Shown in pieces: positions 39,133 through 40,831 of a DNA stretch of 64,000 bases. The stretch lies in the NCBI RefSeq assembly GCF_000376225.1, contig NZ_AQXL01000135.1, positions 62,001 to 126,000 of the forward strand, given 5' to 3'. The translations under genes were made by a program, and so were the position numbers. This stretch comes from Effusibacillus pohliae DSM 22757 (GTDB lineage: Bacteria > Bacillota > Bacilli > Tumebacillales > Effusibacillaceae). Under the pieces are notes generated by a model, which made no database searches, was not told the DNA's origin, and saw only the letters and a program-made list of their open reading frames with translations. The stretch's first letter is position 1, and every line of letters starts with the position of its first letter.

Positions 39133-39173
39133 ATGGAGGTCGTATTTTCATAAAGTTTTTTATAGACCTCCAT
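39133..39173. repeat. 9-bp inverted repeat at the left side of the IS110 element
   Basis: ATGGAGGTC (39133-39141) and GACCTCCAT (39165-39173) are perfect inverted repeats around an AT-rich 23-base loop. It may be part of the element's left end or a target hairpin that the element entered. Confidence 0.6.
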
Positions 39174-39231
39174 GCCGCTACGGCGGCACCATCAGATGAT
39201 GAAAATCGGGCAGTTGAGGTATAATCAACTT

Positions 39232-39411
39232 GCGGCTGGTGAAGGCAGGTCGTGACTTCATGGTGCTTGCGAGCCCGATAGGTAGACTGAACCCCAACGA
39301 CCAGGTGCACCACAGACTGTTGCTCCGATTCGGAAGCACGCGGGATAGAATGATCGAGAATGGTCGTTGCACCAGTCCTTCCATTTGAAAGCCGCAAGGA
39401 GTTTGACGGAT
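39232..39411 (+). ncRNA. Candidate IS110 bridge RNA
   Basis: A TATAAT box (39220-39225) is followed by a GC-rich, strongly structured stretch with no coding. It includes TGAAG/CTTCA (39239/39256), GCTTGCGAGC (39265-39274), and a 9-bp stem CAACGACCA (39295-39303) with TGGTCGTTG (39361-39369) enclosing a 57-base loop. Recently described IS110 bridge RNAs come from exactly this 5' non-coding position and carry target- and donor-binding loops. Confidence 0.6.
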
Positions 39412-40632
39412 ATGGACGTGGTATACAGTCGCGTTTGCGGTCTGGATGTACACAAAAAGAACGTCGTGGCTTGTGTGCTCACACCGGAAACAAAAGAAAT
39501 CCGTACTTTCTCCACCATGACTGAAGATCTTCTGGCGCTGGTCGATTGGATTAAGCAACACGGATGTACGCACGTTGCGATGGAAAGCACCGGTTCGTAC
39601 TGGAAACCTGTTTACAACCTGCTGGAGATGGAAGACATCAAAACGTTGGTGGTCAATGCCCGCCACATCAAGCATGTGCCGGGGCGTAAAACGGACGTCA
39701 AAGATGCGGAATGGATTGCCGGTTTGCTGCGGCACGGCCTGCTGCAAGGCAGTTACATTCCAAGTCGTGATCAGCGGGAACTGCGGGAACTGGTCCGGTA
39801 TCGCCGCAGCCTGATCGAAGAACGGGCCCGGGAAGTCAACCGGATTCACAAGGTTCTTGAAGGGGCCAACATTAAACTGTCATCGGTGGCAAGCGATGTG
39901 CTGGGCAAATCCGGACGGGCGATGATCGAAGCAATGGTCGCGGGAGAAACGGATGCCGTGATGCTGTCCGAATTGGCACAACGGCGGCTGAAAAGCAAAA
40001 AGCCGGAATTGATCAAGGCATTGAACGGACTGATGGGTCCGCATCAGCGGCTGATGCTGGCAGCGCAATTACGGCATATCGACGATTTGGACGCGCTGAT
40101 CAAACAACTGGACGAAGAGATCAAGAGGCGGATGCTCCCTTTTGAGGAAGACCTGGAACGGTTGGATACGATTCCCGGAGTGGCAAGGCGCACCGCAGAA
40201 CAGATTTTGGCGGAAATCGGCACCGACATGAACCGGTTTCCCTCCGCCGCCCATCTGTGTTCGTGGGCGGGGCTGGCTCCAGGTAACCATGAAAGTGCCG
40301 GTAAACGTAAATCCGGTCGAACGACAAAAGGGAATCAAAAGCTGCGAAGCGCCTTGGTAGAGGCCGCCCAAGCTGCAGCCCGAACGAAGAACACGTACTT
40401 GTCGAGTCAATACCGTCGAATCGCCGCCCGTCGGGGAGCCAATCGAGCTGCGGTTGCAGTTGCCCACAGCATCTTGACGATCGTTTACCATCTCCTGAAG
40501 CGCAAGCAAACGTATGTGGAACTAGGTGCTAACTATTATGAAGAACGGCAGCGCGACCGAGTGGTCAAACAAGCCGTTCGAAAGCTGGAAGCGTTAGGAT
40601 TGAAGGTCACGGTGGAGGAAGCGATTGCGTAA
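39412..40632 (+). CDS. IS110-family transposase (recombinase)
   Basis: 406-residue DEDD recombinase. The RuvC-like N-terminal domain shows GLDVHKKNVVACV, AMESTGSYWKPVYN and KTDVKDAEWIA, and the C-terminal Transposase_20 domain has IPGVARRTAEQILAEIG, FPSAAHLCSWAGLAPGN and the serine in NHESAGKRKSG. The gene is intact, so the element may be active. AAGGAG lies about 12 bases before ATG 39412. Confidence 0.93.
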   Translation: MDVVYSRVCGLDVHKKNVVACVLTPETKEIRTFSTMTEDLLALVDWIKQHGCTHVAMESTGSYWKPVYNLLEMEDIKTLVVNARHIKHVPGRKTDVKDAEWIAGLLRHGLLQGSYIPSRDQRELRELVRYRRSLIEERAREVNRIHKVLEGANIKLSSVASDVLGKSGRAMIEAMVAGETDAVMLSELAQRRLKSKKPELIKALNGLMGPHQRLMLAAQLRHIDDLDALIKQLDEEIKRRMLPFEEDLERLDTIPGVARRTAEQILAEIGTDMNRFPSAAHLCSWAGLAPGNHESAGKRKSGRTTKGNQKLRSALVEAAQAAARTKNTYLSSQYRRIAARRGANRAAVAVAHSILTIVYHLLKRKQTYVELGANYYEERQRDRVVKQAVRKLEALGLKVTVEEAIA

Positions 40633-40831
40633 GAAACAGGTCGTCCAGAAATTACCATGTGGACGATAGATGAGTTGTGGCCTTTTTTTGTCTTTTCAAG
40701 AGCTAATATTTTCGGGATAGAAAGAGGAAATAGCGTGAAAGAGCGCATAGAACTTGTACCGCTGGCATATTTCTAACAATGGGCGGTCTGCCGTCCAAAT
40801 TCCGGCTCTTTTTGCAAGGAGGGACACTTGC

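What the first reader, a model, noticed from the sequence alone, without database searches (positions are those of the whole stretch)
39220..39411. Candidate bridge RNA of the IS110 element
IS110 recombinases are guided by a bridge RNA made from the element's non-coding end. Here a TATAAT leads into a coding-free, highly paired stretch with a 9-bp stem enclosing a 57-base loop, right before an intact transposase. The loops could be matched to donor and target DNA.
Basis: partly seen in the sequence, partly recalled or inferred. Interest (0 to 1): 0.62.

Follow-up and report, generated by a model that had tools for sequence, protein, structure and literature searches.

The report
Bridge RNA with flipped guide order
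The stretch in front of this jumping gene encodes a guide RNA that tells the IS110 recombinase where to cut; across about 140 related elements the guide segments follow the insertion sites, but in the opposite order from the well-studied relative IS621, so guide order does not mark the IS110 branch as had been proposed.

Summary
The finding holds. The window carries a complete IS110-family element, 39164-40720. Its ends were fixed by relatives, including copies inside CRISPR repeats with intact repeats as empty sites. The flagged stretch is its left non-coding end.

A covariance model finds the same RNA in 48 of 399 genomes of the class. Its two-loop fold is supported by compensatory changes in 30 of 38 pairs. 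Bases 39279-39283 track the left flank and 39342-39346 track the right element end; these were the top signals in an unsupervised scan. This copy's donor guide CGGGATAG equals its right end exactly. Its own target guide matches its left flank poorly (2 of 5 bases; 125 of 142 elements have at least 4).

What is new compared with IS621, re-derived here as a control: guide order is reversed in the target loop, the right-end guide sits on the opposite side of the donor loop, and the core reads AG instead of CT. This is the order reported for IS1111 elements, but here the RNA lies upstream and the transposase is not in the IS1111 clade. The donor/target site is turned round relative to the RNA-transposase cassette. 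No RNA was measured, and no guide for the left element end was found.

The parts
39164..40720 (+). Whole IS110-family element, from the AG core at the left end to the AG core at the right end
   Evidence: Identity between copies stops here: three copies in G033, LE/RE comparison of relatives, empty sites in CRISPR repeats for L093/L096
39164..39165 (+). Left copy of the AG core dinucleotide
   Evidence: Shared by LE, RE and target; the preceding T is not constant (L002, L107, L094, L108)
39220..39225 (+). -10-like box TATAAT of the RNA
   Evidence: Conserved at fixed offset: perfect in 25/100 leaders vs 1.3% shuffled. No good -35 seen; promoter activity not tested
39229..39398 (+). Bridge RNA (approximate extent)
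   Evidence: Model R1 match 39230-39398, 163 bits; covariation
39229..39237 (+). 5' arm of the outermost stem (partner 39390-39398, which overlaps the tnp Shine-Dalgarno AAGGAG at 39396-39401)
   Evidence: 9 bp, 100% complementary
39248..39251 (+). Target-loop closing stem GGUC, partner GA.CC 39289-39293
   Evidence: Double changes at three of the four pairs (helices 3-4)
39253..39260 (+). 5' target guide; pairs with the top strand RIGHT of the core in relatives
   Evidence: 0/5000 shuffles; exact in L103, L124 and L128; poor fit to this copy's own flank; not at the top of the unsupervised scan
39261..39276 (+). Hairpin inside the target loop
   Evidence: helix 5, 98.9% of cells paired
39278..39285 (+). 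3' target guide including core AG; pairs with the bottom strand LEFT of the core in relatives
   Evidence: Left flank -1..-5 with 39283..39279 are the top five covarying pairs; 0/5000; only 2/5 in this copy
39286..39287 (+). Handshake-like AC, equal to the donor left end after the core
   Evidence: AC/AC here, AT/AT in L002, TGG/TGG in Variovorax; most variation follows clades
39295..39303 (+).
   Evidence: All 9 pairs have double changes in the family (helix 6)
39321..39338 (+). Hairpin inside the donor loop
   Evidence: helix 8
39341..39348 (+). Donor guide CGGGATAG = right end of this element (40713-40720)
   Evidence: Exact in this copy; RE -3..-7 with 39346..39342 identity 0.93-1.00 for the top pairs; 0/5000
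39361..39369 (+). Donor-loop stem 3' arm
39412..40632 (+). IS110 transposase/recombinase, 406 aa; D12, E58, D95, D98 and S295 align with IS621 D11, E60, D102, D105 and S241
   Evidence: Pfam PF01548 and PF02371, NF033542 310.7 bits, alignment (the columns printed there are two residues before the catalytic ones)
40713..40720 (+). Right end CGGGATAG with the right copy of the AG core

Best explanation
The region encodes the bridge RNA of an IS110-family insertion sequence. It is transcribed from the left end and bound by the downstream DEDD/serine recombinase. One loop recognises the insertion site: its 5' guide pairs with the top strand right of the AG core, its 3' guide with the bottom strand left of the core. 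The second loop recognises the joined ends of the excised circle; [quoted passage not shown] The chemistry is taken to be that of IS621, but the DNA is presented turned round: read on the other strand, the core is CT and the guides follow the IS621 scheme. The donor/target site is thus inverted relative to the RNA-transposase cassette. Shown here: element ends, fold, covariation of guides with flank and right end, reversed order. Inferred: expression, RNP formation, circle intermediate, recombination.
For: Ends include the region. Same RNA in 48/399 class genomes; fold with double changes in 30/38 pairs. Guides: 3' target guide vs left flank 4.82/6 vs 2.55 shuffled, 5' guide vs reverse complement of right flank 2.42/5 vs 1.64, donor guide vs right end 5.76/6 vs 5.11, all 0/5000; IS621-type order gives no signal (1803/5000, 4224/5000). 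Unsupervised covariation recovers the left-flank and right-end diagonals as top hits. This copy's donor guide is exact. IS621 re-derived as control shows the opposite order and a CT core. Variovorax relative (44% aa) has the same reversed order. Catalytic residues conserved.
Against: No RNA or recombination data. This copy's target guides fit its own flanks poorly (2/5 left). The right-flank signal is weaker than the left and absent from the top of the unsupervised scan. No guide for the left element end was found. Shuffle tests do not correct for shared ancestry.
Confidence: 0.9

Rival explanations
1. It is a bridge RNA with ordinary IS621 order: 5' guide to the left target and 3' guide to the right target.
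For: RNA is upstream of tnp and the transposase is outside the IS1111 clade, as for IS621.
Against: The IS621-type assignment shows no signal (1803/5000 and 4224/5000), the reversed one 0/5000; the core is AG, not CT; the IS621 control behaves the opposite way.
Confidence: 0.03
2. It is a structured 5' leader that only regulates transposase translation (the outer stem overlaps the Shine-Dalgarno sequence) and guides nothing.
For: The 3' arm 39390-39398 overlaps AAGGAG 39396-39401.
Against: Loop bases follow the flanks and the right end of each element, which a leader would not explain. A double role is not excluded.
Confidence: 0.04
3. The RNA is a real bridge RNA type, but this copy is stranded: its target guide has drifted, its flank was rearranged, or it landed off target, so it may no longer excise or re-insert at its present site.
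For: 2 of 5 left-flank matches, whereas 125 of 142 elements have at least 4. The intergenic region is not conserved in the genus. The guide-predicted site ATAGGTAGAAGTC occurs once in the genome with one mismatch, below the reversed-pattern control.
Against: The ORF, catalytic residues, RNA fold and donor guide are intact. IS621 also tolerates some off-target insertions (PMC11208160).
Confidence: 0.5

Closest known systems
IS621 bridge RNA (IS110 family, Piv-like branch; PMC11208160, PMC11208158)
   Same: RNA in the left end upstream of tnp on the same strand; target loop then donor loop, each a stem with an inner hairpin; guides include a core dinucleotide; DEDD plus serine recombinase
   Different: Guide order reversed in the target loop and right-end guide on the 3' side of the donor loop; core AG instead of CT on the tnp strand; transposase 406 aa versus 315-330 aa for that branch; no guide for the left element end found
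ISEc21 seekRNA (IS110 type; PMC11187229)
   Same: NCR upstream of tnp, guides for both target strands
   Different: ISEc21 has the bottom-strand match first; this family has it second
IS1111-group seekRNAs (ISEc11, ISKpn4, ISPa11; PMC11187229)
   Same: Top-strand complement first, bottom-strand match second
   Different: IS1111 RNAs lie downstream of tnp; IS1111 transposases form a separate clade (100/99) of 330-350 aa; IS1111 has longer subterminal inverted repeats

Membership tests
IS110 family (broad) | DEDD (RuvC-like) N-terminal domain plus Transposase_20 domain with a catalytic serine | tested here: met
   PF01548 2.4e-41, PF02371 6.7e-27; NF033542; catalytic residues aligned
IS110 family (broad) | No target duplication beyond a shared core dinucleotide | tested here: met
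   CRISPR-repeat empty sites of relatives L093/L096: AG once when empty, at both ends when occupied
IS110 family (broad) | Structured non-coding RNA with loops matching target and donor | tested here: met
   the donor left-end guide was not found
IS110 family (broad) | Circular intermediate; RNA bound by the recombinase | not testable with these tools
   Needs an experiment
IS110 group (IS621/ISEc21 type) | RNA encoded upstream of tnp in the left end | tested here: met
   39229-39398 upstream of 39412 and inside the element
IS110 group (IS621/ISEc21 type) | Guide order: bottom-strand match (left target) first, top-strand match second | tested here: not met
   Reversed order 0/5000; IS621 order no signal; IS621 control. 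So it is filed as an IS110-family variant, not as an IS621/ISEc21-type member
IS1111 group | Guide order: top-strand match first | tested here: met
IS1111 group | RNA downstream of tnp | tested here: not met
   RNA upstream
IS1111 group | Transposase in the IS1111 clade | tested here: not met
   IS4321, IS5075, ISShdy1 and L261 form one group at 100/99 that excludes the window family; the deep split between it and the rest is only 82/89
IS1111 group | Subterminal inverted repeats of 7-17 bp | tested here: inconclusive
   Only GAAAAT / ATTTTC (6-7 bp), placed asymmetrically in LE and RE; seen by eye, not tested statistically

The most novel reading that the evidence does not exclude
IS110-family elements exist in a third layout: guide RNA upstream of the transposase, as in IS621, but with the whole donor/target site inverted relative to the RNA-transposase cassette, as the guide order of IS1111 implies. 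The RNP scheme would be unchanged and only the direction in which DNA ends are attached to the cassette would have flipped. Guide order would then be a matter of cassette orientation and not a mechanistic divide between IS110 and IS1111.
Probability: 0.8. Interest if true: 0.62.

Novelty: new variant of a known kind. Interest (0 to 1): 0.57.

Why it matters
The seekRNA paper (PMC11187229) took the reversed guide order of IS1111 versus IS110 as a sign that the two families may work differently, on the basis of one IS110-type element. Here a large upstream-RNA family has the IS1111 order. That makes the question testable: one RNP scheme with swapped DNA polarity, or two mechanisms. It also supplies a structure-based RNA model for which Rfam has no match, and rules for reading left and right guides in long-transposase IS110 elements, including members from thermophiles that may interest genome-engineering work.

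Tried and rejected
Rfam gave no match. Single-sequence folding energy was not significant. An empty site for this copy was sought through the AI-2E neighbour gene in the same genus; the intergenic DNA is not conserved. A search of the genome for the guide-predicted target found one near match, fewer than the reversed-pattern control. A left-end donor guide was sought by covariation and nothing was found. The alternative helix GGUCGU / ACGACC, which appears in the single-sequence minimum-energy fold, competes with the donor-loop stem; the consensus uses GGUC/GACC for the target loop and CAACGACCA/UGGUUGUUG for the donor loop, where every pair has double changes. An automatic parse misplaced the left end of one element (L033) and created a false zero. 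The first catalytic-residue columns printed were two residues off and were corrected by reading the motifs.

Full report
OBSERVATION. All described features are present. TATAAT lies at 39220-39225. The 9-bp stem with a 57-nt loop is 39295-39303 / 39361-39369. An intact IS110-type transposase ORF follows at 39412-40632. As a single sequence the stretch folds only slightly better than shuffles (z -1.22; -1.81 for the trimmed RNA), so 'highly paired' alone would not have been evidence.

ELEMENT ENDS. Relatives were found in the window's genome and in 23 of 101 related genomes, 67 of 399 genomes of the class, and by protein search in named genomes. Copies in G033 and many other genomes share sequence that stops abruptly at LE ..AG-AC..CCATGCC and RE ..TTTTC.GGAT-AG. 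In the window this gives 39164-40720. Members with LE preceded by AA (L002, L107, L094, L108) and RE ending in CAG (L094, L108) reduce the shared core to AG. Two Thermoanaerobacter wiegelii copies sit inside CRISPR repeats whose intact neighbours GTTTCAATTCCTTATAGGTAGGCTAAAAAC are empty sites: AG is present once when empty and at both ends when occupied. The flagged stretch is therefore inside the element, in its 5' non-coding end.

THE RNA. A covariance model from 24 members matches the window at 39230-39398 with 163 bits. It has matches at E <= 0.001 in 48 of 399 genomes of the class, and weakly in a Variovorax IS110 element (34 bits, E 7e-7) and, below significance or marginally, in Bradyrhizobium, Citrobacter and Arthrobacter elements. 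On 77 aligned sequences 94.2% of cells pair and 30 of 38 pairs show changes on both sides, against 8-14 when partners are slid. That alignment was fitted to the model and so leans towards it, but the RNAalifold consensus on a plain MAFFT alignment is where the helices came from. A TATAAT-like box sits at a constant offset upstream. The outermost stem's 3' arm overlaps the tnp Shine-Dalgarno sequence; regulation by that overlap is conjecture.

GUIDES. I extracted loop segments and compared them with each element's own flanks and ends. In 38 non-redundant elements the 3' segment of the target loop matches the left flank at 4.82 of 6 positions (shuffled 2.55, 0/5000). The 5' segment matches the reverse complement of the right flank (2.42 of 5 versus 1.64, 0/5000). 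The IS621-type assignment shows no signal (1803/5000 and 4224/5000). The donor-loop 3' segment matches the right end (5.76 of 6 versus 5.11, 0/5000). An unsupervised mutual-information scan of every RNA column against every flank or end position put the diagonals left flank -1..-5 with 39283..39279 and right end -3, -4, -6 and -7 with 39346, 39345, 39343 and 39342 at the top (143 elements with a left end, 95 with both ends, effective number 72). The right-flank signal was not at the top of that scan. Of 142 elements, 125 match the left flank at 4 or 5 of 5 bases. Exact covarying right ends include CGGGATAG, CAGGATAG, CAGGGTAG, CGGGGTAG, CAAGATAG, CAGGGC(AG) and CATGGG(AG). Shuffling does not correct for shared ancestry, but identical RNAs at independent sites (for example the Paenibacillus brasilensis copies with AGTATTAG) and distant members behave alike.

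THIS COPY. Its donor guide CGGGATAG (39341-39348) is identical to its right end (40713-40720). Its target guides fit its own flanks poorly: left 2 of 5, right only partly. I could not find an empty site or an abundant matching target in the genome. It may be an off-target insertion, a rearranged flank or a drifted guide; I cannot decide.

ORDER OF GUIDES. In IS621 the 5' sides of both loops carry the left-target and right-end sense sequences (PMC11208160, PMC11208158). I re-derived this from six IS621 copies as a control: NCR segment ATCGGGCCT versus target ATCAGGCCT, segment ACAGTATC versus right end ACAGTATCT, core CT, RNA upstream (read by eye from its printed sequences). In the window's family the corresponding sequences are on the 3' sides of both loops and the core is AG. 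Read on the opposite strand the two schemes coincide (core CT), including a handshake-like pair: the bases after the 3' target guide equal the first bases of the donor left end (AC/AC here, AT/AT in L002, TGG/TGG in Variovorax). That handshake point is suggestive only, because most of its variation follows clades. The seekRNA study reports 'top-strand complement first' for IS1111 elements, with the RNA downstream, and the reverse for ISEc21 of the IS110 type, with the RNA upstream (PMC11187229). The window's family combines upstream RNA with the IS1111 order. Its transposase is not in the IS1111 clade; at 406 aa it has the length that paper gives for the subgroup of IS110 itself (395-455 aa). 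The Variovorax element, 44% identical in protein, has the same order.

WHAT IS NOT SHOWN. Expression, processing, RNP formation, circle formation and recombination are inferred from IS621 and ISEc21. The segment that reads the left element end was not found: variable LE positions 5-7 covary with no RNA column, so the LE may be read through constant bases or by protein. I could not see the figures of PMC11208160 (Extended Data Fig. 10 shows six further elements), so the reversed order may already be drawn there; the passages of the papers I read do not mention it.

VERDICT.

Noticed in passing
L093 and L096 (Thermoanaerobacter wiegelii), right after the 'CTTATAG' flank: Two copies of a related RNA-guided element are inserted exactly inside CRISPR repeats (29 repeats in each fetched stretch), and the element's guides resemble the repeat (left 6 of 8 bases, right TACCT). 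An IS110 element that targets CRISPR arrays would be worth a study.
   Followed up: partly
L077, L083, L036, L058 flanks: Paenibacillus brasilensis and other copies sit in or next to a short repeat of the type TTAGACT..AAATAAAGT, which occurs in tandem in L036 and L058.
   Followed up: partly
L045, L046, L247 (genome G007): Short elements of about 250 bp with the family's left and right ends but no transposase, some in tandem: apparent non-autonomous derivatives. One group lies upstream of the AI-2E transporter gene, the gene next to the window's element.
   Followed up: partly
L047 (G000:C134:14500-14730): An internally deleted remnant of the window's own element in the same genome: left end, an internal piece and the right end joined.
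   Followed up: no
L215, L216, L217, L218 (G000 contigs C69, C121, C130, C95): A second, distant element family with the same RNA fold in the window's genome; its left flanks end in CTTAA and its 3' target segment reads GGCTTAAAC, suggesting an AA core.
   Followed up: partly
L060, L106, L091, L061: Some elements are inserted exactly at the right end of another family member or in tandem, with a target guide equal to a right-end sequence (for example CAGGATAG in L091, CATGGGAG in L061).
   Followed up: no
window 39164-39210 versus 39283-39320: The left end (TAGAC..GCACCATCAGATGAT) resembles, in the same order and spacing, the RNA segment from the target guide into the donor loop (TAGAC..GCACCACAGATTGT in relatives). 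Seen by eye and unexplained; it could be an old duplication or a shared binding motif.
   Followed up: no
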